Shown one piece after another: positions 6,491 through 57,710 of a stretch of 64,000 nt of DNA (within the stretch, counting starts at the first letter, position 1; each line of letters opens with the position of its first letter). The translations under genes were made by a program, and so were the position numbers. The notes beneath the pieces are model-generated. The model searched no databases. It saw only the letters and a list, made by a program, of their open reading frames with translations, and was not told the DNA's origin. Source of the stretch: Euonymus europaeus (taxonomy: Eukaryota > Streptophyta > Magnoliopsida > Celastrales > Celastraceae); assembly GCA_963580455.1 (NCBI GenBank), contig OY756958.1, forward strand, positions 13,032,501 to 13,096,500. The letters run 5' to 3'.

Positions 6491-6499
6491 GGGTTTTGG

Positions 6500-18189: not shown

Positions 18190-18830
18190 TATACTCGTAA
18201 AATTTGACATAGAAGAACAATAAATAGTGTACACCGAGCAATTTTGATAGTCCAAAGTTGCACAACTCTCTACCTTGTGGAGCTTTTAATGTTTTTGTCC
18301 ATTTGTCATAGAAAGTTGGGGTTTTGGCATCGAAATAATCCAGGAAGCATATATTCGTAAAATTTGACATAGAAGAACAGTAAAAAGTGTACACCGAGCT
18401 ACTTTGATAGTCCGAAGTTGCTCAACTCACTCTATTGAAGAGCTTTAAACGGTTTTGTTCATTTGTCATAGAAAGTTGGGGTTTTGGCATCGAAATAATC
18501 TAGGAAGCTTATACTCGTAAAATTTGACATAGAAGAACAATAAAAAGTATACACCGAGCAACTTTTATGGTCCGAAGTTGCTCAACTCTCTCTATGGAGT
18601 AGCTTTTAATAGTTTTGTCGATTTGTCATAGATAGTTGGTGTTTTGTCATCAAAATAATCTACGAATCTTATACTCGAAAAATTTGACATAGAAGAACAA
18701 CAAAAAGTGTACACCAAGCAACTTTGATAGTTCGAAGTTGCTCAACTCACTCTATGGAGTAGCTTTAAATCGTTTTGTCCACTTGTCAAAGAAAGTAGAT
18801 GGTTTTCTTATGGAAATAATCCAGAAAGCT
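18190..18830. repeat. h-a-b2-i monomer cassette (left of central array)
   Basis: Full four-monomer cassette: h ('ctctaccttgtggagc'), a ('ctctattgaag'), b2 ('gtcgatttgtcatagatag') and i ('ccacttgtca', 'gatggttttcttatgg'). Its h monomer lies 2,240 bp (14 monomers) after the previous h. The i monomer marks the left boundary of the regular HOR array. Confidence 0.85.
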
Positions 18831-18990
18831 TATACTCGTAAAATTTGACATAGAAGAACAATAAAAAGTGTACACCGAGCAATTTTGATAGTTCGAAGTT
18901 GCACAACTCTCTCTATGGAGGAGCTTTTAATGTTTTTGTTCATTTGGCATAGAAAGTTGGGGTTTTGGAATCAAAATAATCCAGGAAGCA
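18831..18990. repeat. Representative satellite monomer (type c')
   Basis: One monomer in the register used throughout. Positions 1-60 are A/T-rich ('tatactcg', 'aaaatttgaca', 'ataaaaagtg', then the palindrome gtgtacac). Positions 61-94 are G/C-richer and carry 'gaagttgcacaactctctc' and the type-diagnostic box. Positions 95-160 contain A/T tracts about every 10 bp ('cttttaatg', 'gtttttg', 'catttg', 'gaaag', 'gttttgg', 'gaaataa'). This copy has 'catttggcat', which marks the c' subtype, and ends in 'ggaatcaaaataatcc'. The start point is arbitrary because the array is tandem. Confidence 0.95.
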
Positions 18991-19150
18991 TATACTCGTA
19001 AAATTTGACATAGAAGAACAATAAATAGTGTACACTGAGCAATTTTGATAGTCCGAAGTTGCAAAACTCTCTCCATGGAGGAGCTTTTAATGTTTTTATC
19101 CATTTGTCATAGAAAGTTTGGGTTTTGGCATCGAAATAATCCAGGAAGCA

Positions 19151-20110
19151 TATACTCGTAAGATTTGACATAGAAGAACAATAAAAAGTGTACACCGAGC
19201 AACTTTGATAGTCCGAAGTTGCTCAACTCACTCTGTGGAGGAGCTTTAAACGGTTTTGTTCATTTGTCATAGAAAGTTGGGGTTTTGGCATCGAAATAAT
19301 CTAGGAAGCTTATACTCGTAAAATTTGACATAGAATAATAGTAAAAAATGTACATCGAGCAACTTTTATGGTCCGAAGTTTCTCAACTCTCTCTATGGAG
19401 TAGCTTTAAAGGGTTTTGTCCATTTGTCATAGAAAGTTGGGGTTTTGGCATCGAAATAACCGAGGAAGCTTATTCTCGTAAAATTGGACATAGAAGAACA
19501 ATAAAAAGTGTACACCGAGCAATTTTGATAGTTCGAAGTTGCACAACTCTCTCGATGGAGGAGCTTTTAATGTTTTTGTCCATTTGTCATAGAAAGTTGG
19601 GGTTTTGGAATTAAAATAATCCAGGAAGTATATACTCGTAAAATTTGACATAGAAGAACAATAAATAGTGTACACCGAGCAATTTTGATAGTCCGAAGTT
19701 GCACAACTCTCTCCATGGAGGAGGTTTTAATATTTTTGTCCATTTGTCATAGAAAGTTGGGGTTTTGGCATCGAAATAATCCAGGAAGCATATACTCTTA
19801 AAATTTGACATAGAAGAACAATAAAAAGTGTACACCGAGCAATTTTGATAGTTCGAAGTTGCACAACTCTCTCTATGGAGGAGCTTTTAATGTTTTTGTC
19901 CATTTGGCATAGAAAGTTGGGGTTTTGGAATCAAAATAATCCAGGAAGCATATACTCATAAAATTTGACATAGAAGAACAATAAATAGTGTACACTGAGC
20001 AATTTTGATAGTCCGAAGTTGCAAAACTCTCTCCATGGAGGAGCTTTTAATGTTTTTGTCCATTTGTCATAGAAAGTTGGGGTTTTGGCATCGAAATAAT
20101 CCAGGAAGCA
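19151..20110. repeat. HOR unit, 6-mer (a-b-c-d-c'-g)
   Basis: Six monomers, 960 bp. The b copy has the variant 'gaagtttctcaac' and the c copy 'ctctcgatggagg'. With the preceding c'-g pair it was duplicated to 22.3-23.7 kb at an offset of 3,521 bp. Confidence 0.8.
19197..19224. repeat. Inverted repeat with 9-bp perfect stem (class-A monomer, example)
   Basis: The left arm gagcaactt and right arm aagttgctc are exact reverse complements around the 10-nt loop tgatagtccg. The element recurs in nearly every a and b monomer (b carries the loop ttatggtccg) and in most monomers of the first 2.4 kb. In c-g monomers the arms are gagcaattt and aagttgcac, which leaves one A/A mismatch and one T/G pair. 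Dyad symmetry of this kind can form a hairpin or cruciform. Whether it does so in the cell is not shown by the sequence. Confidence 0.9.
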
Positions 20111-22030
20111 TATACTCGTAAGATTTGACATAGAAGAACAATAAAAAGTGTACACCGAGCAACTTTGATAGTCCGAAGTTGCTCAACTCACTCTGTGGAG
20201 GAGCTTTAAACGGTTTTGTTCATTTGTCATAGAAAGTTGGGGTTTTGGCATCGAAATAATCTACGAAGCTTATACTCGTAAAATTTGACATAGAATAACA
20301 ATAAAAAATGTACACCGAGCAAATTTTATGGTCCGAAGTTGCTCAACTCTCTCTATGGAGTAGCTTTAAAGGGTTTTGTCCATTTGTCATAGAAAGTTGG
20401 GGTTTTGGCATCGAAATAACCGAGGAAGCTTATACTCGTAAAATTGGACATAGAAGAACAATAAAAAGTGTACACCGAGCAATTTTGATAGTTCGAAGTT
20501 GCACAACTCTCTCTATGGAGGAGCTTTTAATGTTTTTGTCCATTTGTCATAGAAAGTTGGGTTTTTGGAATCAAAATAATCCAGGAAGTATATACTCGTA
20601 AAATTTGACATAGAAGAACAATAAATAGTGTACACCGAGCATATTTGATAGTCCGAAGTTGCACAACTCTCTCCATGGAGGAGCTTTTAATATTTTTGTC
20701 CATTTGTCATAGAAAGTTGGGGTTTTGGCATCGAAATAATCCAGGAAGCATATACTCTTAAAATTTGACATAGAAGAACAATAAAAAGTGTACACCGAGC
20801 AATTTTGATAGTCCGAAGTTGCACAACTCTCTCTATGGAGGAGCTTTCAATGTTTTTGTCCATTTGTCATAGAAAGTTGGGGTTTTGGAATCAAAATAAT
20901 CCAGGAAGCATATACTCGTAAAATTTGACATAGAAGAACAATAAATAGTGTAGACCGAGCAATTTTGATAGTCCGAAGTTGCACAACTCTCTCCACGAAG
21001 GAGCTTTTAATGTTTTTTCTCCATTTGTCATAGAAATTTGGGGTTTTGTCATCGAAATAATCCAGGAAGCATATACTCGTAAAATTTGACATAGAAGAAC
21101 AATAAATAGTGTAGACCGAGCAATTTTGATAGTCCGAAGTTGTACAACTCTCTCCACGAAGGAGCTTTTAATGTTTTTGTCCATTTGTCATAGAAAGTTG
21201 GGGTTTTGTCATCGAAATAATCCAGGAAGCATATACTCTTAAAATTTGACATATAAGAACAATAAAAAGTGTACACGAGCAATTTTGATAGTTCGAAGTT
21301 GCACAACTCTCTCTATGGAGGAGCTTTTAATGTTTTTGTCCATCTGGCATAGAAAGTTGGGGTTTTGGAATCAAAATAATCCAGGAAGCATATACTCGTA
21401 AACTTTGACATAGAAGAACAATAAATAGTGTAGACCGAGCAATTTTGATAGTCCGAAGTTGCACAACTCTCTCCACGAAGGAGCTTTTAATGTTTTTGTC
21501 CAGTTGTCATAGAAAGTTAGGGTTTTGGAATCAAAATAATCCAGGAAGTATATACTCGTAAAATTTGACATAGAAGAACAATAAATAGTGTACACCGAGC
21601 AATTTTGATAGTCCGAAATTGCACAACTCTCTCCATGGAGGAGCTTTTAATATTTTTGTCCATTTGTCATAGAAAGTTGGGGTTTTGGCATCGAAATAAT
21701 CCAGGAAGCATATACTCTTAAAATTTGACGTAGAAGAACAATAAATAGTGTATACCGAGCAATTTTGATAGTCCGAAGTTGCACAACTCTCTCTATGGAG
21801 GAGCTTTTAATGTTTTTGTCCATTTGGCATAGAAAGTTGGGGTTTTGGAATCAAAATAATCCAGGAAGCATATACTCGTAAAATTTGACATAGAAGAACG
21901 ATAAATAGTGTACACTGAGCAATTTTGATAGTCCGAAGTTGCAAAACTCTCTCCATGGACGAGCTTTTAATGTTTTTGTCCATTTGTCATAGAAAGTTGG
22001 GGTTTTGGCATCGAAATAATCCAGGAAGCA
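20111..22030. repeat. HOR unit, full 12-mer (a-b-c-d-e-f-f-c'-f-d-c'-g)
   Basis: The longest regular cycle seen, 1,920 bp and 12 monomers. It includes a +1 change near 21018 ('gttttttctcc') and a -1 change near 21276 ('gtgtacacgagc'). The f after c' carries 'gtccagttgtcat', a subtype found in that slot in most units. I take this as the reference cycle; 8-mers and 6-mers look like internal deletions of it. Confidence 0.8.
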
Positions 22031-22671
22031 TATACTCGTAAGATTTGACATAGAAGAACAATAAAAAGTGTACACCGAGCAACTTTGATAGTCCGAAGTT
22101 GCTCAACTCACTCTGTGGAGGAGCTTTAAACGGTTTTGTTCATTTGTCATAGAAAGTTGGGGTTTTGGCATCGAAATAATCTAGGAAGCTTATACTCGTA
22201 AAATTTGACATAGAATAACAATAAAAAATGTACATCGAGCAACTTTTATGCTCCGAAGTTGCTCAACTCTCTCTATGGAGTAGCTTTAAATGGTTTTGTC
22301 CACTTGTCAAAGAAAGTAGATGGTTTTCTTATGGGAATAATCCAGAAAGCTTATACTCGTAAAATTTGACATAGAAGAACAATAAAAAGTGTACACCGAG
22401 CAATTTTGAAAGTTCGAAGTTGGACAACTCTCTCTATGGAGGAGCTTTTAATGTTTTTGTCCATTTGGCATAGAAAGTTGGGGTTTTGGAATCAAAATAA
22501 TCCAGGAAGCATATACTCGTAAAATTTGACATAGAAGAACAATAAATAGTGTACACTGAGCAATTTTGATAGTCCGAAGTTGCAAAACTCTCTCCATGGA
22601 GGAGCTTTTAATGTTTTTATCCATTTGTCATAGAAAGTTTGAGTTTTGGCATCGAAATAATCCAGGAGGCA
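22031..22671. repeat. HOR unit, 4-mer with b/i hybrid (a-b/i-c'-g)
   Basis: Four monomers. The second starts as b ('ggagtagctttaaatgg') and ends as i ('gatggttttcttatgg'), with one extra base relative to register. From about 22281 it matches 18760 onward, so it brings i-type flank sequence into the central array. Confidence 0.8.
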
Positions 22672-23631
22672 TATACTCGTAAGATTTGACATAGAAGAAC
22701 AATAAAAAGTGTACACCGAGCAACTTTGATAGTCCGAAGTTGCTCAACTCACTCTGTGGAGGAGCTTTAAACGGTTTTGTTCATTTGTCATAGAATGTTG
22801 GGGTTTTGGCATCGAAATAATCTAGGAAGCTTATACTCGTAAAATTTGACATAGAATAACAATAAAAAATGTACATCGAGCAACTTTTATGGTCCGAAGT
22901 TGCTCAACTCTCTCTATGGAGTAGCTTTAAAGGGTTTTGTCCATTTGTCATAGAAAGTTGGGGTTTTGGCATCGAAATAACCGAGGAAGCTTATACTCGT
23001 AAAATTGGACATAGAAGTACAATAAAAAGTGTACACCGAGCAATTTTGATAGTTCGAAGTTGCACAACTCTCTCGATGGAGGAGCTTTTAATGTTTTTGT
23101 CCATTTGTCATAGAAAGTTGGGGTTTTGGAATTAAAATAATCCAGGAAGTATATACTCGTAAAATTTGACATAGAAGAACAATAAATAGTGTACACCGAG
23201 CAATTTTGATAGTCCGAAGTTGCACAACTCTCTCCATGGAGGAGCTTTTAATATTTTTGTCCATTTGTCATAGAAAGTTGAGGTTTTGCCATCGAAATAA
23301 TCCAGGAAGCATATACTCTTAAAATTTGACATAGAAGAACAATAAAAAGTGTACACCGAGCAATTTTGATCGTTCGAAGTTGCACAACTCTCTCTATGGA
23401 GGAGCTTTTAATTTTTTTGTCCATTTGGCATAGAAATTTGGGGTTTTGGAATCAAAATAATCCAGGAAGCATATACTCGTAAAATTTGACATAGAAGAAC
23501 AATAAATAGTGTACACTGAGCAATTTTGATAGTCCGAAGTTGCAAAACTCTCTCCATGGAGGAGCTTTTAATGTTTTTGTCCATTTGTCATAGAAAGTTG
23601 GGGTTTTGGCATCTAAATAATCCAGGAAGCA
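22672..23631. repeat. HOR unit, 6-mer (a-b-c-d-c'-g), duplicate of 19151-20110
   Basis: Same order and same private variants as 19151-20110 at a 3,521-bp offset, including 'ctctcgatggagg' and 'gaattaaaataatcc'. It differs at single bases, for example 'catagaagtac' near 23020 and 'gaggttttgcc' near 23280. Confidence 0.8.
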
Positions 23632-25710
23632 TATACTCGTAAGATTTGACATAGAAGAACAATAAAAAGTGTACACCGAGCAACTTTGATAGTCCGAAGT
23701 TGCTCAACTCACTCTGTGGAGGAGCTTTAAACGGTTTTGTTCATTTGTCATAGAAAGTTGGGTTTTGGCATCGAAATAATCTAGGAAGCTTATACTCGTA
23801 AAATTTGACATAGAATAACAATAAAAAATGTACACTGAGCAACTTTTATGGTCCGAAGATGCTCAACTCTCTCTATGGAGTAGCTTTAAAGGGCTTTGTC
23901 CATTTGTCATAGAAAGTTGGGGTTTTGGCATCAAAATAACCGATGAAGCTTATACTCGTAAAATTGGACATAGATGAACAATAAAAAGTGTACACCAAGC
24001 AATTTTGATAGTTCGAAGTTGCACAACTCTCTCTATGGAGGAGCTTTTAATGTTTTTGTCCATTTGTCATAGAAAGTTGGGTTTTTGGAATCAAAATAAT
24101 CCAGGAAGTATATACTCGTAAAATTTGACATAGAAGAACAATAAATAGTGTACACCGAGCAATTTTGATAGTCCGAAGTTGCACAACTCTCTCCATGGAG
24201 GAGCTTTTAATATTTTTGTCCATTTGTCATAGAAAGTTGGGGTTTTGGCATCGAAATAATCCAGGAAGCATATACTCTTAAAATTTGACATAGAAGAACA
24301 ATAAAAAGTGTACACCGAGCAATTTTGATAGTCCGAAGTTGCACAACTCTCTCTATGGAGGAGCTTTCAATGTTTTTGTCCATTTGTCATAGAAAGTTGG
24401 GGTTTTGGAATCAAAATAATCCAGGAAGCATATACTCGTAAAATTTGACATAGAAGAACAATAAATAGTGTAGACCGAGCAATTTTGATAGTCCGAAGTT
24501 GCACAACTCTCTCCACGAAGGAGCTTTTAATGTTTTTGTCCATTTGTCATAGAAAATTGGGGTTTTGTCATCGAAATAATCCAGGAAGCATATACTCGTA
24601 AAATTTGACATAGAAGAACAATAAATAGTGTAGACCGAGCAATTTTGATAGTCCGAAGTTGCACAACTCTCTCCACGAAGGAGCTTTTAATGTTTTTGTC
24701 CATTTGTCATAGAAAGTTGGGGTTTTGTCATCGAAATAATCCAGGAAGCATATACTCTTAAAATTTGACATAGAAGAACAATAAAAAGTGTACACCGAGC
24801 AATTGTGATAGTTCGAAGTTGCACAACTCTCTCTATGGAGGAGCTTTTAATGTTTTTGTCCATTTGGCATAGAAAGTTGGGGTTTTGGAATCAAAATAAT
24901 CCAGGAAGCATATACTCGTAAACTTTGACATAGAAGAACAATAAATAGTGTAGACCGAGCAATTTTGATAGTCCGAAGTTGCACAACTCTCTCCACGGAG
25001 GAGCTTTTAATGTTTTTGTCCAGTTGTCATAGAAAGTTGGGGTTTTGGCATCGAAATAATCCAGGAAGCTTATACTCGTAAAATTTGACATAGAATAACA
25101 ATAAAAAATGTACATCGAGCAACTTTTGTGGTCCGAAGTTGCTCAACTCTCTCTATGGAGGAGCTTTTAATGTTTTTGTCCATTTGTCATAGAAAGTTGG
25201 GGTTTTGGAATTAAAATAATCCAGGAAGTATATACTCGTAAAATTTGACATAGAAGAACAATAAATAGTGTACACCGAGCAATTTTGATAGTCCGAAGTT
25301 GCACAACTCTCTCCATGGAGGAGCTTTTAATATTTTTGTCCATTTGTCATAGAAAGTTGGGGTTTTGGCATCGAAATAATCCAGGAAGCATATACTCTTA
25401 AAATTTGACATAGAAGAACAATAAAAAGTGTACACCGTGCAATTTTGATAGTTCGAAGTTGCACAACTCTCTCTATGGAGGAGCTTTTAATGTTTTTGTC
25501 CATTTGGCATAGAAAGTTGGGGTTTTGGAATCAAAATAATCCAGGAAGCATATACTCGTAAAATTTGACATAGAAGAACAATAAATAGTGTACACTGAGC
25601 AATTTTGATAGTCCGAAGTTGCAAAACTCTCTCCATGGAGGAGCTTTTAATGTTTTTGTCCATTCGTCATAGAAAGTTGGGGTTTTGGCATCGAAATAAT
25701 CTAGGAAGCT
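23632..25710. repeat. HOR unit, 13-mer (12-mer plus hybrid b/c monomer)
   Basis: Order a-b-c-d-e-f-f-c'-f-(b/c)-d-c'-g. The extra monomer near 25071-25230 begins as b ('gcaacttttgtggtccg', 'ttgctcaac') and switches to c ('gaggagcttttaatg'), as expected from unequal exchange between units. The a monomer has a 1-bp loss near 23762. Confidence 0.75.
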
Positions 25711-26990
25711 TAGACTCGTAAAATTTGACATAGAATAACAATAAAAAATGTACACCGAGCAACGTTTATGGTCCGAAGTTGCTCAACTCTCTCTATGGAG
25801 TAGCTTTAAAGGGTTTTGTCCATTTGTCATAGAAAGTTGGGGTTTTGGCATCGAAATAACCGAGGAAGCTTATACTCATAAAATTGGACATAGAAGAACA
25901 ATAAAAAGTGTACACCGAGCTATTTTGATAGTTCGAAGTTGCACAACTCTCTCTATGGAGGAGCTTTTAATGTTTTTGTCCATTTGTCATAGAAAGATGG
26001 GTTTTTGGAATCAAAATAATCCAGGAAGTATATACTCGTAAAATTTGACATAGAAGAACAATAAATAGTGTACACCGAGCAATTTTGATAGTCCGAAGTT
26101 GCACAACTCTCTCCATGGAGGAGCTTTTAATATTTTTGTCCATTTGTCATAGAAAGTTGGGGTTTTGGCATCGAAATAATCCAGGAAGCATATACTCTTA
26201 AAATTTGACATAGAAGAACAATAAAAAGTGTACACCGAGCAATTTTGATAGTCCGAAGTTGCACAACTCTCACTATGGATGAGCTTTCAATGTTTTTGTC
26301 CATTTGTCATAGAAAGTTGGGGTTTTGGAATCAAAATAATCCAGGAAGCATATACTCGTAAAATTTGACATAGAAGAACAATAAATAGTGTAGACCGAGC
26401 AATTTTGATAGTCCGAAGTTGCACAACTCTCTCCACGAAGGAGCTTTTAATGTTTTTGTCCATTTGTCATAGAAAGTTGGGGTTTTGTCATCGAAATAAT
26501 CCAGGAAGCATATACTCGTAAAATTTGACATAGAAGAACAATAAATAGTGTAGACCGAGCAATTTTGATAGTCCGAAGTTGCACAACTCTCTCCACGAAG
26601 GAGCTTTTAATGTTTTTGTCCATTTGTCATAGAAAGTTGGGGTTTTGTCATCGAAATAATCCAGGAAGCATATACTCTTAAAATTTGACATAGAAGAAGA
26701 ATAAAAAGTGTACACCGAGCAATTTTGATATTTCGAAGTTGCACAACTCTCTCTATGGAGGAGCTTTTAATGTTTTTGTCCATTTGGCATAGAAAGTTGG
26801 GGTTTTGGAATCAAAATAATCCAGGAAGCATATACTCGTAAACTTTGACATAGAAGAACAATAAATAGTGTAGACCGAGCAATTTTGATAGTCCGAAGTT
26901 GCACAACTCTCTCTATTGAGGAGCTTTTAATATTTTTGTTCATTTGTCATAGAAAGTTGGGGTTTTGGCATCGAAATAATCCAGGAAGCT
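25711..26990. repeat. HOR unit, 8-mer (b-c-d-e-f-f-c'-f)
   Basis: Eight monomers, 1,280 bp, without a. The e copy has the private variant 'ctctcactatggatgagc', shared with the next unit at 27541. The last monomer is a chimera with 'ctctctattgagg' and 'atatttttgttc'. Confidence 0.75.
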
Positions 26991-28590
26991 TATACTCGTA
27001 AAATTTGACATAGAATAACAATAAAAAATGTACACCGAGCAACTTTTATGGTCTGAAGTTGCTCAACTCTCTCTATGGAGTAGCTTTAAAGGGTTTTGTC
27101 CATTTGTCATAGAAAGTTGGGGTTTTGGCATCGAAATAACCGAGGAAGCTTATACTCGTAAAATTGGACATAGAAGAACAATAAAAAGTGTACACCGAGC
27201 TATTTTGATAGTTCGAAGTTGCACAACTCTCTCTATGGAGGAGCTTTTAATGTTTTTGTCCATTTGTCATAGAAAGATGGGTTTTTGGAATCAAAATAAT
27301 CCAGGAAGTATATACGCATAAAATTTGACATAGAAGAACAATAAATAGTGTACACCGAGCAATTTTGATAGTCCGAAGTTGCACAACTCTCTCCATGGAG
27401 GAGCTTTTAATATTTTTGTCCATTTGTCATAGAAAGTTGGGGTTTTGGCATCGAAATAATCCAGGAAGCATATACTCTTAAAATTTGACATAGAAGAACA
27501 ATAAAAAGTGTACACCGAGCAATTTTGATAGTCCGAAGTTGCACAACTCTCACTATGGATGAGCTTTCAATGTTTTTGTCCATTTGTCATAGAAAGTTGG
27601 GGTTTTGGAATCAAAATAATCCAGGAAGCATATACTCGTAAAATTTGACATAGAAGAACAATAAATAGTGTAGACCGAGCAATTTTGATAGTCCGAAGTT
27701 GCACAACTCTCTCCACGAAGGAGCTTTTAATGTTTTTGTCCATTTGTCATAGAAAGTTGGGGTTTTGTCATCGAAATAATCCAGGAAGCATATACTCGTA
27801 AAATTTGACATAGAAGAACAATAAATAGTGTAGACCGAGCAATTTTGATAGTCCGAAGTTGCACAACTCTCTCCACGAAGGATCTTTTAATGTTTTTGTC
27901 CATTTGTCATAGAAAGTTGAGGTTTTGTCATCGAAATAATCCAGGAAGCATATACTCTTAAAATTTGACATAGAAGAACAATAAAAAGTGTACACCGAGC
28001 AATTTTGATAGTTCGAAGTTGCACAACTCTCTCTATGGAGGAGCTTTTAATGTTTTTGTCCATTTGGCATAGAAAGTTGGGGTTTTGGAATCAAAATAAT
28101 CCAGGAAGCATATACTCGTAAACTTTGACATAGAAGAACAATAAATAGTGTAGACCGAGCAATTTTGATAGTCCGAAGTTGCACAACTCTCTCCACGAAG
28201 GAGCTTTTAATGTTTTTGTCCAGTTGTCATAGAAAGTTAGGGTTTTGGAATCAATATAATCCAGGAAGTATATACTCGTAAAATTTGACATAGAAGAACA
28301 ATAAATAGTGTACACCGAGCAATTTTGATAGTCCGAAGTTGCACAACTCTCTCTATGGAGGAGCTTTTAATGTTTTTGTCCATTTGGCATAGAAAGTTGG
28401 GGTTTTGGAATCAAAATAATCCAGGAAACATATACTCGTAAAATTTGACATAGAAGAACAATAAATAGTGTACACTGAGCAATTTTGATAGTCCGAAGTT
28501 GCAAAACTCTCTCCATGGACGAGCTTTTAATGTTTTTGTCCATTTGTCATAGAAAGTTGGGGTTTTGGCATCGAAATAATCTAGGAATCT
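26991..28590. repeat. HOR unit, 10-mer (b-c-d-e-f-f-c'-f-c'-g)
   Basis: The first eight monomers repeat the previous unit at a 1,280-bp offset and share 'gagctattttgatag' and 'cactatggatgagc'. The unit then adds c'-g. One copy has 'atacgcataaaa' near 27313. Confidence 0.75.
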
Positions 28591-30990
28591 TATACTCGTA
28601 AAATTGGACATAGAATAACAATAAAAAATGTACATCGAGCAACTTTTATGGTCCAAAGTTGCTCAACTCTCTCTATGGAGTAGCTTTAAAGGGTTTTGTC
28701 CATTTGTCATAGAAAGTTGGGGTTTTGGCATCGAAATAACCGAGGAATCCTATACTCGTAAAATTGGACATAGAAGAACAATAAAAAGTGTACACCGAGC
28801 AATTTTGATAGTTCGAAGTTGCACAACTCTCTCTATGGAGGAGCTTTTATTGTTTTTGTCCATTTGTCATAGAAAGTTGGGTTTTTGGAATCAAAATAAT
28901 CCAGGAAGTATATACTCATAAAATTTGACATAGAACAACAATAAATAGTGTACACCGAGCAATTTTGATAGTCCGAAGTTGCACAACTCTCTCCATGGAG
29001 GAGCTTTTAATATTTTTGTCCATTTGTCATAGAAAGTTGGGGTTTTGGTATCGAAATAACCGAGGAATCTTATACTCGTAAAATTGGACATAGAAGAACA
29101 ATAAAAAGTGTACACCGAGCAACTTTGATAGTCCGAAGTTGCTCAACTCACTCTGTGGAGGAGCTTTAAACGGTTTTGTTCATTTGTCATAGAAAGTTGG
29201 GGTTTTGGCATTGAAATAATCTAGGAAGCATATAATCGTAAGATTTGACATAGAAGAACAATAAAAAGTGTACACCGAGCAACTTTGATAATCCGAAGTT
29301 GCTCAACTCACTCTGTGAAGGAGCTTTAAACGGTTTTGTTCATTTGTCATAGAAAGTTGAGGTTTTGGCAGCGAAATAATCTAGGAAGCTTATACTCGTA
29401 AAATTTGACATAGAATAACAATAAAAAATGTACACCGAGCAACTTTTATGGTCCGAAGATGCTCAACTCTCTCTATGGAGTAGCTTTAAAGGGTTTTGTC
29501 CATTTGTCATAGAAAGTTGGGGTTTTGGCATCGAAATAACCGAGGAAGCTTATACTCGTAAAATTGGACATAAAAGAACAATAAAAAGTGTACACCGAGC
29601 AATTTTGATAGTTCGAAGTTGCACAACTCTCTCTATGGAGGAGCTTTTAATGTTTTTGTCCATTTGTCATAGAAAGTTGGGTTTTTGGAATCAAAATAAT
29701 CCAGGAAGTATATACTCGTAAAATTTGACATAGAAGAACAATAAATAGTGTACACCGAGCAATTTTGATAGTCGGAAGTTGCACAACTCTCTCCATGGAG
29801 GAGCTTTTAATATTTTTGTCCATTTGTCATAGAAAGTTGGGGTTTTGGCATCGAAATAATCCAGGAAGCGTATACTCTTAAAATTTGACATAGAAGAACA
29901 ATAAAAAGTGTACACCGAGCAATTTTGATAGTCCGAAGTTGCACAACTCTCTCTATGGAGGAGCTTTCAATGTTTTTGTCCATTTGTCATAGAAAGTTGG
30001 GGTTTTGGAATCAAAATAATCCAGGAAGCATATACTCGTAAAATTTGACATAGAAGAACAATAAATAGTGTGGACCGAGCAATTTTGATAGTCCGAAGTT
30101 GCACAACTCTCTCCACGAAGGAGCTTTTAATGTTTTTGTCCATTTGTCATAGAAAGTTGGGGTTTTGTCATCGAAATAATCCAGGAAGCATATACTCGTA
30201 AAATTTGACATAGAAGAACAATAAATAGTGTAGACCGAGCAATTTTGATAGTCCGAAGTTGCACAACTCTCTCCACGAAGGAGCTTTTAATGTTTTTGTC
30301 CAGTTGTCATAGAAAGTTAGGGTTTTGGAATCAAAATAATCCAGGAAGTATATACTCGTAAAATTTGACATAGAAGAACAATAAATAGTGTACACCGAGC
30401 AATTTTGATAGTCCGAAGTTGCACAACTCTCTCCAAGGAGGAGCTTTTAATATTTTTGTCCATTTGTCATAGAAAGTTGGGGTTTTGGCATCGAAATAAT
30501 CCAGGAAGCATATACTCTTAAAATTTGACGTAGAAGAACAATAAAAAGTGTACACCGAGCAATTTTGATAGTCCGAAGTTGCACAACTCTCTCTATGGAG
30601 GAGCTTTTAATGTTTTTGTCAATTTGGCATAGAAAGTTGGGGTTTTGGAATCAAAATAATCCAGGAAGCATATACTCGTAAAATTTGACATAGAAGAACA
30701 ATAAATAGTGTACACTGAGCAATTTTGATAGTCCGAAGTTGCAAAACTCTCTCCATGGACGAGCTTTTAATGTTTTTGTCCATTTGTCATAGAAAGTTGG
30801 GGTTTTGGCATCGAAATAATCCAGGAAGCATATACTCGTAAGATTTGACATAGAAGAACAATAAAAAGTGTACACCGAGCAACTTTGATAGTCCGAAGTT
30901 GCTCAACTCACTCTGTGGAGGAGCTTTAAACGGTTTTGTTCATTTGTCATAGAAAGTTGGGGTTTTGGCATCGAAATAATATAGGAAGCT
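28591..30990. repeat. Compound HOR unit, 15-mer (2,400 bp)
   Basis: Order b-c-d-a-a-b-c-d-e-f-f-d-c'-g-a. Two adjacent a monomers and a second b-c-d show that two shorter units were fused. Markers are 'gtccaaagttgc' in b, 'gaggaatct', 'gcttttattg' in c and 'gtcggaagttgc' in d. The whole compound repeats at 30991 and, changed, at 33551. Confidence 0.75.
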
Positions 30991-47950: not shown

Positions 47951-49070
47951 TATACTCGTAAAATTTGACATAGAATAACAATAAAAAATGTACACCGAGC
48001 AACTTTTGTGGTCCGAAGTTGCTCAACTCTCTCTATGGAGTAGCTTTAAAGGGTTTTGTCCATTTGTCATAGAAAGTTGGGGTTTTGGCATCGAAATAAC
48101 CGAGGAAGCTTATACTCGTAAAATTGGACATAGAAGAACAATAAAAAGTGTACACCGAGCAATTTTGATAGTTCGAAGTTGCACAACTCTCTCTATGGAG
48201 GAGCTTTTAATGTTTTTGTCCATTTGTCATAGAAAGTTGGGTTTTTGGAATCAAAATAATCCTGGAAGTATATACTCGTTAAATTTGACATAGAAGAACA
48301 ATAAATAGTGTACACCGAGCAATTTTGATAGTCCGAAGTTGCACAACTCTCTCCATGGAGGAGCTTTTAATATTTTTGTCCATTTGTCATAGAAAGTTGG
48401 GGTTTTGGCATCGAAATAATCCAGGAAGCATATACTCTTAAAATTTGACATAGAAGAACAATAAAAAGTGTACACCGAGCAATTTTGATAGTCCGAAGTT
48501 GCACAACTCTCTCTATGGAGGAGCTTTCAATGTTTTTGTCCATTTGTCATAGAAAGTTGGGGTTTTGGAATCAAAATAATCCAGGAAGCATATACTCGTA
48601 AAATTTGACATAGAAGAACAATAAATAGTGTACACCGAGCAATTTTGATAGTCCGAAGTTGCACAACTCTCTCCATGGAGGAGCTTTTAATATTTTTGTC
48701 CATTTGTCATAGAAAGTTGGGGTTTTGGCATCGAAATAATCCAGGAAGCATATACTCTTAAAATTTGACGTAGAAGAACAATAAAAAGTGTACACCGAGC
48801 AATTTTGATAGTCCGAAGTTGCACAACTCTCTCTATGGAGGAGCTTTTAATGTTTTTGTCCATTTGGCATAGAAAGTTGGGGTTTTGGAATCAAAATAAT
48901 CCAGGAAGCATATACTCGTAAAATTTGACATAGAAGAACAATAAATAGTGTACACTGAGCAATTTTGATAGTCCGAAGTTGCAAAACTCTCTCCATGGAC
49001 GAGCTTTTAATCTTTTTGTCCATTTGTCATAGAAAGTTGGGGTTTTGGCATCGAAATAATCCAGGAAGCA
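47951..49070. repeat. Block Q copy 2, 7-mer (b-c-d-e-d-c'-g)
   Basis: Matches 41871-42990 at offset 6,080, including 'actcgttaaatttg'. Single-base changes include 'aacttttgtggtcc' near 48001 and 'aatctttttg' near 49010. Confidence 0.8.
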
Positions 49071-50350
49071 TATACTCGTAAGATTTGACATAGAAGAACA
49101 ATAAAAAGTGTACACCGAGCAACTTTGATAGTCCGAAGTTGCTCAACTCACTCTGTGGAGGAGCTTTAAACGGTTTTGTTCATTTGTCATAGAAAGTTGG
49201 GGTTTTGGCATCGAAATAATATAGGAAGCTTATACTCGTAAAATTTGACATAGAATAACAATAAAAAATGTACATCGAGCAACTTTTATGGTCCGAAGTT
49301 TCTCAACTCTCTCTATGGAGTAGCTTTAAAGGGTTTTGTCCATTTGTCATAGAAAGTTGGGGTTTTGGCATCGAAATAACCGAGGAATCTTATACTCGTA
49401 AAATTGGACATAGAAGAACAATAAAAAGTGTACACCGAGCAATTTTGATAGTTCGAAGTTGCACAACTCTCTCTATGGAGGAGCTTTTAATGTTTTTGTC
49501 CATTTGTCATACAAAGTTGGGTTTTTGGAATCAAAATAATCCTGGAAGTATATACTCGTAAAATTTGACATAGAAGAACAATAAATAGTGTACACCGAGC
49601 AATTTTGATAGTCCGAAGTTGCACAACTCTCTCCATGGAGGAGCTTTTAATATTTTTGTCCATTTGTCACAGAAAGTTGGGGTTTTGGCATCGAAATAAT
49701 CCAGGAAGCATATACTCTTAAAATTTGACATAGAAGAACAATAAAAAGTGTACACCGAGCAATTTTGATAGTCCGAAGTTGCACAACTCTCTCTATGGAG
49801 GAGCTTTCAATGTTTTTGTCCATTTGTCATAGAAAGTTGGGGTTTCGGAATCAAAATAATCCAGGAAGCATATACTCGTAAAATTTGACATAGAAGAACA
49901 ATAAATAGTGTACACCGAGCAATTTTGATAGTCCGAAGTTGCACAACTCTCTCCATGGAGGAGCTTTTAATATATTTGTCCATTTGTCATAGAAAGTTGG
50001 GGTTTTGGCATCGAAATAATCCAGGAAGCATATACTCTTAAAATTTGACGTAGAAGAACAATAAAAAGTGTACACCGAGCAATTTTGATAGTCCGAAGTT
50101 GCACAACTCTCTCTATGGAGGAGCTTTTAATGTTTTTGTCCATTTGGCATAGAAAGTTGGGGTTTTGGAATCAAAATAATCCAGGAAGCATATACTCGTA
50201 AAATTTGACATAGAAGAACAATAAATAGTGTACACTGAGCAATTTTGATAGTCCGAAGTTGCAAAACTCTCTCCATGGACGAGCTTTTAATGTTTTTGTC
50301 CATTTGTCATAGAAAGTTGGGGTTTTGGCATCGAAATAATTCAGGAAGCA
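49071..50350. repeat. Block Q copy 2, 8-mer (a-b-c-d-e-d-c'-g)
   Basis: Matches 42991-44270 at offset 6,080 with 'catacaaagttgg'. The variant 'gtcacagaaag' near 49668 is shared with the later copy near 52548. The copy-specific change 'taatatatttg' is near 49970. Confidence 0.8.
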
Positions 50351-50990
50351 TATACTCGTAAGATTTGACGTAGAAGAACAATAAAAAGTGTACACCGAGC
50401 AACTTTGATAGTCCGAAGTTGCTCAACTCACTCTGTGGAGGAGCTTTAAACGGTTTTGTTCATTTGTCATAGAAAGTTGGGGTTTTGGCATCGAAATAAT
50501 ATAGGAAGCTTATACTCGTAAAATTTGACATAGAATAACAATAAAAAATGTACATCGAGCAACTTTTATGGTCCGAAGTTGCTCAACTCTCTCTATGGAG
50601 TAGCTTTAAAGGGTTTTGTCCATTTGTCATAGAAAGTTGGGGTTTTGGCATCGAAATAACCGAGGAATCTTATACTCGTAAAATTGGACATAGAAGAACA
50701 ATAAAAAGTGTACACCGAGCAATTTTGATAGTTCGAAGTTGCACAACTCTCTCTATGGAGGAGCTTTTACTGTTTTTGTCCATTTGTCATAGAAAGTTGG
50801 GTTTTTGGAATCAAAATAATCCAGGAAGTATATACTCATAAAATTTGACATAGAACAACAATAAATAGTGTACACCGAGCAATTTTGATAGTCCGAAGTT
50901 GCACAACTCTCTCCATGGAGGAGCTTTTAATATTTTTGTCCATTTGTCATAGAAAGTTGGGGTTTTGGCATCGAAATAATCCAGGAAGCA
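50351..50990. repeat. HOR fragment, 4-mer (a-b-c-d)
   Basis: First four monomers of the 6-mer at 44271, with 'gcttttactg' in c. The expected c'-g is missing; the sequence instead jumps at about 51060 to a c monomer matching 48181. Confidence 0.75.
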
Positions 50991-51950
50991 TATACTCTTA
51001 AAATTTGACATAGAAGAACAATAAAAAGTGTACACCGAGCAATTTTGATAGTTCGAAGTTGCACAACTCTCTCTATGGAGGAGCTTTTAATGTTTTTGTC
51101 CATTTGTCATAGAAAGTTGGGTTTTTGGAATCAAAATAATCCTGGAAGTATATACTCGTTAAATTTGACATAGAAGAACAATAAATAGTGTACACCGAGC
51201 AATTTTGATAGTCCGAAGTTGCACAACTCTCTCCATGGAGGAGCTTTTAATATTTTTGTCCATTTGTCATAGAAAGTTGGGATTTTGGCATCGAAATAAT
51301 CCAGGAAGCATATACTCTTAAAATTTGACATAGAAGAACAATAAAAAGTGTACACCGAGCAATTTTGATAGTCCGAAGTTGCACAACTCTCTCTATGGAG
51401 GAGCTTTCAATGTTTTTGTCCATTTGTCATAGAAAGTTGGGGTTTTGGAATCAAAATAATCCAGGAAGCATATACTCGTAAAATTTGACATAGAAGAACA
51501 ATAAATAGTGTACACCGAGCAATTTTGATAGTCCGAAGTTGCACAACTCTCTCCATGGAGGAGCTTTTAATATTTTTGTCCATTTGTCATAGAAAGTTGG
51601 GGTTTTGGCATCGAAATAATCCAGGAAGCATATACTCTTAAAATTTGACGTAGAAGAACAATAAAAAGTGTACACCGAGCAATTTTGATAGTCCGAAGTT
51701 GCACAACTCTCTCTATGGAGGAGCTTTTAATGTTTTTGTCCATTTGGCATAGAAAGTTGGGGTTTTGGAATCAAAATAATCCAGGAAGCATATACTCGTA
51801 AAATTTGACATAGAAGAACAATAAATAGTGTACACTGAGCAATTTTGATAGTCCGAAGTTGCAAAACTCTCTCCATGGACGAGCTTTTAATGTTTTTGTC
51901 CATTTGTCATAGAAAGTTGGGGTTTTGGCATCGAAATAATCCAGGAAGCA
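50991..51950. repeat. Block Q copy 3, 6-mer (c-d-e-d-c'-g)
   Basis: Matches 48111-49070 at offset 2,880, including 'aatcctggaag' with 'actcgttaaatttg'. One private change is 'gggattttggc' near 51280. Confidence 0.8.
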
Positions 51951-53230
51951 TATACTCGTAAGATTTGACATAGAAGAACAATAAAAAGTGTACACCGAGC
52001 AACTTTGATAGTCCGAAGTTGCTCAACTCACTCTGTGGAGGAGCTTTAAACGGTTTTGTTCATTTGTCATAGAAAGTTGGGGTTTTGGCATCGAAATAAT
52101 ATAGGAAGCTTATACTCGTAAAATTTGACATAGAATAACAATAAAAAATGTACATCGAGCAACTTTTATGGTCCGAAGTTTCTCAACTCTCTCTATGGAG
52201 TAGCTTTAAAGGGTTTTGTCCATTTGTCATAGAAAGTTGGGGTTTTGGCATCGAAATAACCGAGGAATCTTATACTCGTAAAATTGGACATAGAAGAACA
52301 ATAAAAAGTGTACACCGAGCAATTTTGATAGTTCGAAGTTGCACAACTCTCTCTATGGAGGAGCTTTTAATGTTTTTGTCCATTTGTCATACAAAGTTGG
52401 GTTTTTGGAATCAAAATAATCCTGGAAGTATATACTCGTAAAATTTGACATAGAAGAACAATAAATAGTGTACACCGAGCAATTTTGATAGTCCGATGTT
52501 GCACAACTCTCTCCATGGAGGAGCTTTTAATATTTTTGTCCATTTGTCACAGAAAGTTGGGGTTTTGGCATCGAAATAATCCAGGAAGCATATACTCTTA
52601 AAATTTGACATAGAAGAACAATAAAAAGTGTACACCGAGCAATTTTGATAGTCCGAAGTTGCACAACTCTCTCTATGGAGGAGCTTTCAATGTTTTTGTC
52701 CATTTGTCATAGAAAGTTGGGGTTTCGGAATCAAAATAATCCAGGAAGCATATACTCGTAAAATTTGACATAGAAGAACAATAAATAGTGTACACCGAGC
52801 AATTTTGATAGTCCGAAGTTGCACAACTCTCTCCATGGAGGAGCTTTTAATATTTTTGTCCATTTGTCATAGAAAGTTGGGGTTTTGGCATCGAAATAAT
52901 CCAGGAAGCATATACTCTTAAAATTTGACGTAGAAGAACAATAAAAAGTGTACACCGAGCAATTTTGATAGTCCGAAGTTGCACAACTCTCTCTATGGAG
53001 GAGCTTTTAATGTTTTTGTCCATTTGGCATAGAAAGTTGGGGTTTTGGAATCAAAATAATCCAGGAAGCATATACTCGTAAAATTTGACATAGAAGAACA
53101 ATAAATAGTGTACACTGAGCAATTTTGATAGTCCGAAGTTGCAAAACTCTCTCCATGGACGAGCTTTTAATGTTTTTGTCCATTTGTCATAGAAAGTTGG
53201 GGTTTTGGCATCGAAATAATTCAGGAAGCA
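51951..53230. repeat. Block Q copy 3, 8-mer (a-b-c-d-e-d-c'-g)
   Basis: Matches 49071-50350 at offset 2,880 with 'catacaaagttgg' and 'gtcacagaaag'. The private change 'ccgatgttgc' is near 52494. Confidence 0.8.
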
Positions 53231-54190
53231 TATACTCGTAAGATTTGACGTAGAAGAACAATAAAAAGTGTACAACGAGCAACTTTGATAGTCCGAAGTT
53301 GCTCAACTCACTCTGTGGAGGAGCTTTAAACGGTTTTGTTCATTTGTCATAGAAAGTTGGGGTTTTGGCATCGAAATAATATAGGAAGCTTATACTCGTA
53401 AAATTTGACATAGAATAACAATAAAAAATGTACATCGAGCAACTTTTATGGTCCGAAGTTGCTCAACTCTCTCTATGGAGTAGCTTTAAAGGGTTTTGTC
53501 CATTTGTCATAGAAAGTTGGGGTTTTGGCATCGAAATAACCGAGGAATCTTATACTCGTAAAATTGGACATAGAAGAACAATAAAAAGTGTACACCGAGC
53601 AATTTTGATAGTTCGAAGTTGCACAACTCTCTCTATGGAGGAGCTTTTACTGTTTTTGTCCATTTGTCATAGAAAGTTGGGTTTTTGGAATCAAAATAAT
53701 CCAGGAAGTATATACTCATAAAATTTGACATAGAACAACAATAAATAGTGTACACCGAGCAATTTTGATAGTCCGAAGTTGCACAACTCTCTCCATGGAG
53801 GAGCTTTTAATATTTTTGTCCATTTGTCATAGAAAGTTGGGGTTTTGGCATCGAAATAATCCAGGAAGCATATACTCTTAAAATTTGACATAGAAGAACA
53901 ATAAAAAGTGTACACCGAGCAATTTTGATAGTTCGAAGTTGCACAACTCTCTCTATGGAGGAGCTTTTAATGTTTTTGTCCATTTCGCATAGAAAGTTGG
54001 GGTTTTGGAATCAAAATAATCCAAGAAGCATATACTCGGAAAATTTGACATAGAAGAACAATAAATAGTGTACACTGAGCAATTTTGATAGTCCGAAGTT
54101 GCAAAACTCTCTCCATGGAGGAGCTTTTAATGTTTTTGTCCATTTGTCATAGAAATTTGGGGTTTTGGCATCGAAATAATCTAGGAAGCT
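53231..54190. repeat. HOR unit, 6-mer (a-b-c-d-c'-g), copy of 44271-45230
   Basis: Offset 8,960 from 44271 and 2,880 from 50351 for the first four monomers. Private changes are 'tacaacgagc' near 53271, 'catttcgcat' near 53981 and 'actcggaaaatttg' near 54036. Confidence 0.8.
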
Positions 54191-56560
54191 TATACTCGTA
54201 AAATTTGACATAGAATAACAATAAAAAATGTACACCGAGCAACGTTTATGGTCCGAAGTTGCTCAACTCTCTCTTTGGAGTAGCTTTAAAGGGTTTTGTC
54301 CATTTGTCATAGAAATTTGGGGTTTTGGCATCGAAATAACCGAGGAAGCTTATACTCGTAAAATTGGACATAGAAGAACAATAAAAAGTGTACACCGAGC
54401 AATTTTGATAGTTCGAAGTTGCACAACTCTCTCTATGGAGGAGCTTTTAATGTTTTTGTCAATTTGTCATAGAAAGTTGGGTTTTTGGAATCAAAATAAT
54501 CCTGGAAGTATATACTCGTAAAATTTGATATAGAAGAACAATAAATAGTGTACACCGAGCAATTTTGATAGTCCGAAGTTGCACAACTCTCTCCATGGAG
54601 GAGCTTTTAATATTTTTGTCCATTTGTCATAGAAAGTTGGGGTTTTGGCATCGAAATAATCCAGGAAGCATATACTCTTAAAATTTGACATAGAAGAACA
54701 ATAAAAAGTGTACACCGAGCAATTTTGATAGTCCGAAGTTGCACAACTCTCTCTATGGAGGAGCTTTCAATGTTTTTGTCCATTTGTCATAGAAAGTTGG
54801 GGTTTCGGAATCAAAATAATCCAGGAAGCATATACTCGTAAAATTTGACATAGAAGAACAATAAATAGTGTAGACCGAGCAATTTTGATAGTCCGAAGTT
54901 GCAAAACTCTCTCCACGAAGGAGCTTTTAATGTTTTTGTCCATTTGTCATAGAAAGTTGGGGTTTTGTCATCGAAATAATCCAGGAAGCATATACTCGTA
55001 AAATTTGACATAGAAGAACAATAAATAGTGTAGACCGAGCAATTTTGATAGTCCGAAGTTGCACAACTCTCTCCACGAAGGAGCTTTTAATGTTTTTGTC
55101 CATTTGTCATAGAAAGTTGGGGTTTTGTCATCGAAATAATCCAGGAAGCATATACTCTTAAAATTTGACATAGAAGAACAATAAAAAGTGTACACCGAGC
55201 AATTTTGATAGTTCGAGGTTGCACAACTCTCTCTATGGAGGAGCTTTTAATGTTTTTGTCCATTTGGCATAGAAAGTTGGGGTTTTGGAATCAAAATAAT
55301 CCAGGAAGCATATACTCGTAAACTTTGACATAGAAGAACAATAAATAGTGTAGACCGAGCAATTTTGATAGTCCGAAGTTGCACAACTCTCTCCACGAAG
55401 GAGCTTTTAATGTTTTTGCCCAGTTGTCATAGAAAGTTAGGGTTTTGGAATCAAAATAATCCAGGAAGTATATACTCGTAAAATTTGACATAGAAGAACA
55501 ATAAATAGTGTACACCGAGCAATTTTGATAGTCCGAAGTTGCACAACTCTCTCTATGGAGGAGCTTTTAATGTTTTTGTCCATTTGCCATAGAAAGTTGG
55601 GGTTTTGGAATCAAAATAATCCAGGAAGCATATACTCGTAAAATTTGACATAGAAGAACAATAAATAGTGTACACTGAGCAATTTTGATAGTCCGAAGTT
55701 GCAAAACTCTCTCCACGGACGAGCTTTTAATGTTTTTGTCTATTTGTCATAGAAAGTTGGGGTTTTGGCATCGAAATAATCCAGGAAGCATATACTCGTA
55801 AGATTTGACATAGAAGAACAATAAAAAGTGTACACCGAGCAACTTTGATAGTCCGAAGTTGCTCAACTCACTCAGTGGAGGAGCTTTAAACGATTTTGTT
55901 CATTTGTCATAGAAAGTTGGGGTTTTGGCATCGAAATAATCTAGGAAGCATATACTCGTACGATTTGACATAGAAGAACAATAAAAAGTGTACACCGAGC
56001 AACTTTGATAGTCCGAAGTTGCTCAACTCACTCTGTGGAGGAGCTTTAAACGGTTTTTTTCATTTGTCATAGAAAGTTGGGGTTTTGGCATCGAAATAAT
56101 CTCGGAAGCTTATACTCGTAAAATTTGACATAGAATAACAATAAAAAATGTACACCGAGCAAATTTTATGGTCCGAAGATGCTCAACTCTCTCTATGGAG
56201 TAGCTTTAAAGGGTTTTGTCCATTTGTCATAGAAAGTTGGGGTTTTGGCATCGAAATAACCGAGGAAGCTTATACTCGTAAAATTGGACATAGAAGAACA
56301 ATAAAAAGTGTACACCGAGCAATTTTGATAGTTCAAAGTTGCACAACTCTCTCTATGGAGGAGCTTTTAATGTTTTTGTCCATTTGTCATAGAAAGTTGG
56401 GTTTTTGGAATCAAAATAATCCAGGAAGTATATACTCGTAAAATTTGACATAGAAGAACAATAAATAGTGTACACCGAGCAATTTTGATAGTCCGAAGTT
56501 GCACAACTCTCTCCATGGAGGAGCTTTTAATATTTTTGTCCATTTGTCATAGAAAGTTGG
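54191..56560. repeat. Block P, copy 3
   Basis: Collinear with 45231 onward (offset 8,960) and 39311 onward (offset 14,880): 'ctctctttggag', 'aaatttgatatag', 'tttttgcccagttgtc', 'catttgccat', 'ctcagtggagg', and 'gttcaaagttgc' near 56331 matching 41451. It keeps the original b-c-d order that copy 2 lost. Confidence 0.8.
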
Positions 56561-57710
56561 GGTTTTGGCATCGAAATAATCCAGGAAGCATATACTCTTA
56601 AAATTTGACAAAGAAGAACAATAAAAAGTGTACACCGAGCAATTTTGATAGTCCGAAGTTGCACAACTCTCTCTATGGAGGAGCTTTCAATGTTTTTGTC
56701 CATTTGTCATAGAAAGTTGGGGTTTTGGAATCAAAATAATCCAGGAAGCATATACTCGTAAAATTTGACATAGAAGAACAATAAATAGTGTAGACCGAGC
56801 AATTTTGATAGTCCGAAGTTGCACAACTCTCTCCACGAAGGAGCTTTTAATGTTTTTGTCCATTTGTCATAGAAAGTTGGGGTTTTGTCATCGAAATAAT
56901 CCAGGAAGCATATACTCGTAAAATTTGACATAGAAGAACAATAAATAGTGTAGACCGAGCAATTTTGATAGTCCGAAGTTGCACAACTCTCTCCACGAAG
57001 GAGCTTTTAATGTTTTTGTCCAGTTGTCATAGAAAGTTAGGGTTTTGGAATCAAAATAATCCAGGAAGTATATACTCGTAAAATTTGACATAGAAGAACA
57101 ATAAATAGTGTACACCGAGCAATTTTGATAGTCCGAAGTTGCACAACTCTCTCCATGGTGGAGCTTTTAATATTTTTGTCCATTTGTCATAGAAAGTTCG
57201 GGTTTTGGCATCGAAATAATCCAGGAAGCATATACTCTTAAAATTTGACGTAGAAGAACAATAAAAAGTGTACACCGAGCAATTTTGATAGTCCGAAGTT
57301 GCACAACTCTCTCTATGGAGGAGCTTTTAATGTTTTTGTCCATTTGGCATAGAAAGTTGGGGTTTTGGAATCAAAATAATCCAGGAAGCATATACTCGTA
57401 AAATTTGACATAGAAGAACAATAAATAGTGTACACTGAGCAATTTTGATAGTCCGAAGTTGCAAAACTCTCTCCATGGACGAGCTTTTAATGTTTTTGTC
57501 CATTTGTCATAGAAAGTTGGGGTTTTGGCATCGAAATAATCCAGGAAGCATATACTCGTAAGATTTGACATAGAAGAACAATAAAAAGTGTACACCGAGC
57601 AACTTTGATAGTCCGAAGTTGCTCAACTCACTCTGTGGAGGAGCTTTAAACGGTTTTGTTCATTTGTCATAGAAAGTTGGGGTTTTGGCATCGAAATAAT
57701 CTAGGAAGCT
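56561..57710. repeat. Right end of central HOR array
   Basis: Order e-f-f-d-c'-g-a, resembling 29871-30990 at offset 26,720. Private changes include 'ttgacaaagaag' near 56606, 'ccatggtggagc' and 'agttcgggtt' near 57155-57200. The regular array ends here. Confidence 0.75.

What the first reader, a model, noticed from the sequence alone, without database searches (positions are those of the whole stretch)
18831..57710. A variable-length higher-order repeat built on a 12-monomer cycle
Monomer types follow a fixed order. The fullest unit is a-b-c-d-e-f-f-c'-f-d-c'-g (20111-22030, 1,920 bp); 8-mers (1,280 bp, e.g. 42991-44270) and 6-mers (960 bp, e.g. 19151-20110) look like internal deletions. HORs of this regularity are classic in human alpha satellite and are less often documented in other lineages. 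This may be an undescribed HOR satellite family.
Basis: seen in the sequence. Interest (0 to 1): 0.75.

Follow-up and report, generated by a model that had tools for sequence, protein, structure and literature searches.

The report
Plant centromere-type satellite with nested repeats
This stretch is part of a multi-megabase block of 160-letter repeats in a plant chromosome, where slightly different copies recur in a 12-step order that has been cut, skipped and re-copied; the pattern is real, but of a kind already known from human and plant centromeres.

Summary
The whole window, not only 18,831-57,710, is an uninterrupted 160-bp satellite (400 copies). The complete 12-mer occurs uninterrupted only once, and the strongest period is 8 monomers (1,280 bp). 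'Internal deletions' is half the story: of 26 junction classes, 11 read most simply as skips, 13 as back-steps, 2 equally. The window is C2:13.03-13.10 Mb of a plant genome (443 Mb, 16 large contigs). The satellite was found at all 27 places sampled from 8.6 to 13.86 Mb of C2 and in one internal block on each of 5 large contigs sampled, so it is very probably the centromeric satellite. In 14 of 20 C2 stretches a local order exceeds all shuffles. Best mechanism: unequal exchange or break-induced replication between out-of-register monomers, then recent copying of 3-5 kb multi-HOR blocks. A new member of a known kind; nearest in form is the human chromosome 8 HOR. Species unnamed.

The parts
18852..57731 (+). 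Variable-length HOR domain explained by a 12-monomer circle D1 E2 C3 B4 A5 F6 F7 A8 H9 B10 A11 G12 (243 monomers)
20132..22051 (+). The only uninterrupted complete 12-mer (reader: 20111-22030); it lies in a 16-monomer in-order run that starts at 19652
19172..20131 (+). 6-mer DECBAG (reader: 19151-20110)
43012..44291 (+). 8-mer DECBABAG (reader: 42991-44270)
36772..36931 (+). Example of a chimeric G12::D1 monomer (one monomer skipped); 9 such junctions in the span
40932..41091 (+). Example of a chimeric D1::G12 monomer (back-step of one); 6 such junctions in the span
20157..20184 (.). 9-bp inverted repeat GAGCAACTT / AAGTTGCTC with 10-bp spacer, intact in the consensus of types D and E, 6-7 of 9 pairs in types A, B, C, F, G, H
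42031..47309 (+). Recent multi-HOR block, copy at 50991-56269 (lag 8,960 bp), 99.68% identical
41456..45026 (+). Recent multi-HOR block, copy at 47536-51106 (lag 6,080 bp), 99.66% identical
48111..51105 (+). Recent multi-HOR block, copy at 50991-53985 (lag 2,880 bp), 99.77% identical
1..12770 (+). A second HOR of the same satellite (blocks MNOPQ, JKID, ECBAF); block 379-3366 recurs at 8998-11985 (lag 8,619, 99.77%), block 3112-6499 at lag 3,351 (99.73%)
12771..18851 (+). Less ordered satellite between the two HOR domains
57732..64000 (+). Less ordered satellite to the right of the HOR domain

Best explanation
This is a segment of the main, very probably centromeric, 160-bp satellite of a plant chromosome. 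Shown: the array is head-to-tail; monomer variants recur in a 12-step order; departures from that order can be written as jumps that keep the 160-bp register, and a number of them fall inside monomers that are 5'/3' chimeras of two types; blocks of several HORs (3 to 5.3 kb) recur at 99.7% identity; other parts of the same contig's array carry other local orders. Inferred: the variants arose by mutation; unequal exchange between sister chromatids, or break-induced replication that restarts at an out-of-register monomer, first amplified a block with 12 types, then kept deleting and duplicating parts of it, and lately copied multi-HOR blocks. Also inferred: the array as a whole is where CENH3 nucleosomes and the kinetochore form; the unit is close to nucleosome length.
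For: One 160-bp array, no tRNA, no Rfam family, a single ORF of 120 aa or more, without a homologue. Order far beyond chance, 12-cycle test, six parameter settings and half-held-out test. 59 jumps in 26 classes; 51 of 243 monomers hold a jump, 192 none. Position-specific variants recur across units (A5: 77C and 96T against A11: 77T and 96G; B10: 159G). Recent block copies. Window at C2:13,032,501-13,096,500. On C2, 27 of 27 stretches sampled between 8.6 and 13.86 Mb hold this satellite at a mean of about 88-94% identity; three of them are only partly satellite and also hold retroelement-type sequence; 8.2 Mb holds a 72% relative; 14.1 and 14.5 Mb hold none. One internal run of positive points on C1 (5 of 20), C9 (4 of 17, plus one diverged), C16 (1 of 9) and C5 (3 of 11, plus one diverged). 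Local orders elsewhere on C2: 14 of 20 stretches exceed all 500 shuffles, for example lag 17 in L012, 19 in L017, 33 and 10 in L021.
Against: No CENH3, methylation or read data are available, so centromere function and assembly correctness are untested. Only 5 of 16 large contigs were sampled, at points 1.5-2 Mb apart outside C2; the genome-wide pattern count did not complete. 6 of 20 C2 stretches (L018, L020, L023, L024, L025, L031) do not exceed all shuffles. Lag 12 is not enriched across the span. Unequal exchange and break-induced replication predict nearly the same pattern and are not separated here.
Confidence: 0.83

Rival explanations
1. The 12-mer is the ancestor and all shorter units are simple internal deletions of it.
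For: 6-mer, 8-mer and 10-mers can be written as skips inside the 12-cycle; G::D and A5->H9 junctions fit single deletions.
Against: 13 of 26 junction classes are shorter as back-steps; D::G monomers are extra copies; the full 12-mer is uninterrupted once; H is itself a chimera of F (5') and C (3') and also occurs outside the domain.
Confidence: 0.3
2. The variable order is a product of misassembly of collapsed or chimeric reads.
For: Near-identical 3-5 kb blocks are hard to assemble.
Against: Block copies differ at 0.2-0.35% of sites, which would not follow from one molecule placed twice; the same junction classes recur with the same breakpoint intervals; local orders occur in 14 of 20 other stretches.
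Confidence: 0.05
3. The array is a non-centromeric (pericentromeric or knob-like) satellite that happens to be large.
For: Populus has non-centromeric arrays with HORs and no CENH3 peak (PMC12046899, passages); no CENH3 data here.
Against: One internal run of positive points on each of 5 of 5 contigs sampled; on C1, C5 and C9 the outermost positive points lie 4 to 6.4 Mb apart.
Confidence: 0.12
4. The HOR preserves a protein-binding dyad: D and E monomers are kept because a centromere factor binds GAGCAACTT/AAGTTGCTC, while dyad-poor monomers amplify between them.
For: D and E are the only intact-dyad types of the cycle and are among the most visited states (D1 39, E2 36, against F7 7, A8 11); the consensus of 1,487 window and C2 monomers keeps the dyad.
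Against: G12, which lacks the dyad, is visited as often (38). The intact-dyad share varies widely along C2 (15-62% of monomers per stretch outside the window). A D monomer does not fold better than shuffles (z -0.75). Visit counts of related copies are not independent.
Confidence: 0.05

Closest known systems
Human chromosome 8 alpha-satellite HOR (D8Z2; the name is recalled)
   Same: An 11-monomer HOR intermixed with derived 4-, 7- and 8-monomer HORs, in layers (PMC8997354, passages).
   Different: Unrelated 160-bp plant sequence; monomers here are about 91% alike, against 50-70% within a human HOR; no CENP-B box within one mismatch in the window (motif recalled).
Populus Palv156 and Brachypodium CentBd/CentBs centromeric satellites
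   Same: Plant satellites of similar unit length (Palv156 by its name; the CentBd length is recalled) arranged in HORs (PMC12046899; PMC10910784; passages only).
   Different: Their monomer sequences were not at hand, so no sequence comparison was made.
Arabidopsis CEN178 arrays with ATHILA insertions
   Same: Long satellite arrays with local HORs and Ty3-type insertions (general knowledge; the satellite is named).
   Different: 178-bp unit; a different sequence (recalled, not compared).
Rosa CANR4 (about 159-160-bp pericentromeric satellite)
   Same: Unit length, 64% A+T (PMC7262465, passages).
   Different: Neither published CANR4 primer matches the window with up to 3 mismatches; roses have a base number of 7 (recalled; the paper gives 2n = 5x = 35), against 16 large contigs here.

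Membership tests
Higher-order repeat satellite | Distinct monomer types recur in a fixed order; same-type copies more alike than neighbours | tested here: met
   0.980 against 0.918; entropy 1.06 against 2.74 bits
Higher-order repeat satellite | A dominant tandem period | tested here: met
   Lags 8 and 16 exceed all 300 shuffles, of lags 1-40; lags 6, 12 and 15 do not
Higher-order repeat satellite | The order holds in data not used to define the unit | tested here: met
   Right half: 26 jumps against a minimum of 76 in 30 permuted orders; the consensus letters came from the left half, but type labels and order came from the whole
Plant centromeric satellite | One large internal block per chromosome | tested here: inconclusive
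   Met in 5 of 5 contigs sampled at points; 11 of 16 large contigs not sampled
Plant centromeric satellite | CENH3 enrichment | not testable with these tools
   No chromatin data
Human alpha satellite | About 171-bp unit and a CENP-B box in a subset of monomers | tested here: not met
   160-bp unit; 0 CENP-B box matches within 1 mismatch, 4.4 expected by chance
Rosa CANR4 | CANR4 primer sites | tested here: not met
   0 matches with up to 3 mismatches for both primers

The most novel reading that the evidence does not exclude
The array works like the A/B-box organisation of alpha satellite, but in a plant and without CENP-B: an adjacent pair of monomers with an intact 9-bp dyad (D-E) is kept in nearly every unit as an anchor for a sequence-specific centromere or replication factor, while dyad-poor monomers derived locally are gained and lost between the anchors.
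Probability: 0.05. Interest if true: 0.75.

Novelty: new member of a known kind. Interest (0 to 1): 0.36.

Why it matters
The domain gives a base-level record of how a HOR grows and shrinks in a plant: 26 classes of in-register junctions, skips and back-steps at the same monomer pair (G::D and D::G), and recent multi-HOR block copies, all within 64 kb. With reads or a second haplotype it could help to test whether unequal exchange or break-induced replication drives satellite turnover, a long-standing question. It does not reveal a new kind of system.

Tried and rejected
Naming the species: exact-pattern scans of viral and prokaryotic contigs, a distant search of plasmids, a protein search with the one ORF over 120 aa (8 candidates, none at E <= 10) and paper searches gave no identification. 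Acer yangbiense has a 160-bp putative centromeric repeat, but at 41.25% GC (passages), against about 35% here; its sequence was not compared. Sixteen contigs are 22.6-32.8 Mb (23 of 30 contigs measured), which narrows the species but does not name it.

Alternative cycles (6, 8 and two of 10 monomers) were fitted and are worse in likelihood; they use fewer reference monomers. The nearest, a 10-circle, has 393 mismatches and 67 jumps against 363 and 59. At one of six settings the 8-circle uses fewer jumps than the 12-circle (53 against 57), with 568 mismatches against 369.

Coding function: a single ORF of 120 aa or more (158 aa) in the window, no homologue; rejected. RNA families: none at gathering threshold. 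Cruciform function: the dyad is real, but a D monomer does not fold better than shuffles (z -0.75) and a B monomer folds worse than all 200; not pursued.

Mutation spectrum: transitions per site are highest at CG (12 in 92 sites), then CHG (5 in 48) and CHH (35 in 545). This is in line with plant methylation, but the counts are small.

Results against the reading: lag 12 is not enriched across the span; the strict 12-mer occurs once; in the right flank no 4-type word recurs at thresholds 0.03 and 0.04; 6 of 20 C2 stretches show no order beyond all shuffles; G12 lacks the dyad and is visited as often as D1.
Full report
What is there. The window is one head-to-tail satellite of 160 bp from end to end (400.2 copies, 91% matches), GC about 35%. 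I cut it into 400 monomers (the last is cut at 120 bp), 376 of them exactly 160 bp. All pairs are on average 0.909 identical. There is no tRNA, no Rfam match and a single ORF of 120 aa or more, without a homologue.

Is the order real? Same-type copies are 0.980 identical and neighbours 0.918.

Is it a 12-cycle? I built 12 consensus monomers in the order of the fullest unit and let a hidden Markov model walk round that circle, with jumps allowed only in register. It explains 38,880 bp with 363 mismatches (0.93%) and 59 jumps; 192 of 243 monomers hold no jump. With the same monomers in 40 permuted orders the minimum is 115 jumps; with the data shuffled 40 times, 192. Circles of 6, 8 and 10 monomers have lower likelihood, the best 10-circle giving 393 mismatches and 67 jumps; over six settings the 12-circle always has the best likelihood of the three sizes tried (12, 10, 8), though at one setting the 8-circle uses fewer jumps (53 against 57) with 568 mismatches. 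With consensus letters taken from the left half of the span, the circle explains the right half (121 monomers) with 26 jumps, against a minimum of 76 in 30 permuted orders. In that test the type labels and the circle order came from the whole data set, so it tests the letters more strictly than the order. The same circle fits the rest of the window poorly: 5.0% mismatches in 1-12.77 kb, 3.0% in 12.77-18.85 kb, 3.8% in 57.7-63.8 kb, with about 0.5 jumps per monomer against 0.24 in the span.

The full 12-mer is uninterrupted only once. Cutting after each G gives 29 pieces of 2 to 18 monomers; DECBAG is the commonest (6), then ECBABAG, ECBAFFAHAG and DECBABAG (3 each). Across the span only lags of 8 and 16 monomers, of lags 1 to 40, exceed all 300 shuffles.

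How the units vary. Jumps fall into 26 classes by partners and breakpoint interval; the shorter reading is a skip in 11, a back-step in 13, equal in 2. A number lie inside monomers that are 5'/3' chimeras: G before E carries 3' variants of D (G::D, 9 times), and the first D of a D-D pair carries 3' variants of G (D::G, 6 times). Gain and loss at the same monomer pair is what exchange between out-of-register copies predicts. Most of their breakpoint intervals differ (130 for 7 of 9 G::D; 89-129 for 5 of 6 D::G), so most are separate events; one D::G and two G::D share the interval 131-138, so two products of one exchange are not excluded for these. Type H looks like a chimera of F and C, and R of B and E. 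On top of this lie recent copies of multi-HOR blocks: 5,279 bp at lag 8,960 (99.68%), 3,571 bp at lag 6,080 (99.66%), 2,995 bp at lag 2,880 (99.77%), and in the left domain 2,988 bp at lag 8,619 (99.77%) and 3,388 bp at lag 3,351 (99.73%).

Where it lies. The window is C2:13,032,501-13,096,500 of a genome of 443,421,123 bp in 30 contigs (40 of 2,423 candidates were scored there). Sixteen of 23 contigs measured are 22.6 to 32.8 Mb. Of 20 contig starts fetched, 4 are CCCTAAA telomere repeats and 7 read N. RuBisCO large-subunit fragments on two nuclear contigs (3 matches, 2 over the cut-off), the plant-type telomere and the Ty3-type elements mark it as a plant. On C2, all 27 stretches sampled from 8.6 to 13.86 Mb carry the satellite; orientation is + at 8.6-9.8, - at 9.88-12.6 and + from 12.8 Mb on. 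Three of the stretches are partly other sequence: reverse transcriptase, RNase H and integrase domains in L024, reverse transcriptase and RNase H in L018, and a protease match just below its curated cut-off in L031. The name Athila for L024 and L031 is by eye and recall. C1, C5, C9 and C16 each have one internal run of positive points. The 13 satellite pieces of 400 bases from those four contigs match C2 sequence at 88-92% and other contigs at 83-93%; the C2 pool is far larger, so these pieces can show no more than that no strong chromosome-specific sequence is seen.

Other HORs. In 14 of 20 sampled 10-kb stretches of C2 the best lag exceeds all 500 shuffles of the same monomers. The strongest are lag 17 and 34 in L012 (96% of pairs at 0.97 or more), 33 in L021 (100%), 19 in L017 (83%), 33 in L015 (64%) and 14 in L016 (60%); L018, L020, L023, L024, L025 and L031 do not pass. 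L029, at 13.24 Mb, holds a D-E-(C or A)-B series like the window's inside an 11-monomer order. So the window's HOR is one of many local ones.

The dyad. The consensus of D and of E carries GAGCAACTT-10 bp-AAGTTGCTC; the types that dominate the window have 6-7 of 9 pairs. The consensus of the 1,487 window and C2 monomers has the intact form; the share of intact monomers is 15-62% in other stretches and 20% in the window. That the window's common types are a local derivative is an inference. A role for the dyad is untested; G12, without it, is visited as often as D1 (38 against 39), and a D monomer folds no better than shuffles.

Mechanism and known kinds. [quoted passage not shown] I take this to be chromosome 8 from the next passage. 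It is the nearest match in form. Plant HORs are reported in Populus, Brachypodium and soybean (passages). I therefore file this as a new member of a known kind. That the family is undescribed cannot be claimed: the searches were made, in an open-access library only.

Confidence in the best explanation went from 0.85 to 0.83 and the dyad odds went down by 0.01-0.02, because of the stretches that fail the control and the G12 count.

Noticed in passing
window 1-12770: A separate HOR of the same satellite with blocks MNOPQ, JKID and ECBAF, and block copies at lags 8,619 and 3,351 bp (99.7-99.8%); three monomers are 152 bp long.
   Followed up: partly
G000:C2 between 9.81 and 9.87 Mb and between 12.61 and 12.80 Mb: The satellite changes orientation twice on C2 (+, -, +); C1, C5 and C9 also show both orientations at sampled points. 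Inverted satellite subarrays are discussed for Tribolium (PMC13081366, passages).
   Followed up: partly
L032 (C2:8.2 Mb), L090 (C9:13.5 Mb), L117 (C5:17 Mb): Diverged relatives of the satellite, about 70-75% identical, next to the runs of positive points: possibly an older layer.
   Followed up: no
L015 and L028: Recurrent 206-209-bp variant units inside local orders.
   Followed up: no
L018 7264-10000, L024 1-7088, L031 5346-10000: Non-satellite sequence with Ty3-type retroelement domains (weak in L031) inside or beside the C2 array.
   Followed up: partly
L101 (C17:10001-10400): Five small contigs measured are 13-35 kb; the one piece read has GC 54%, higher than the nuclear pieces; possibly a contaminant.
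   Followed up: no
L099 (C30) and L100 (C28): C30 (152.5 kb) reads by eye like a plastid accD region and C28 (327 kb) is of plant mitochondrial size; not tested.
   Followed up: no
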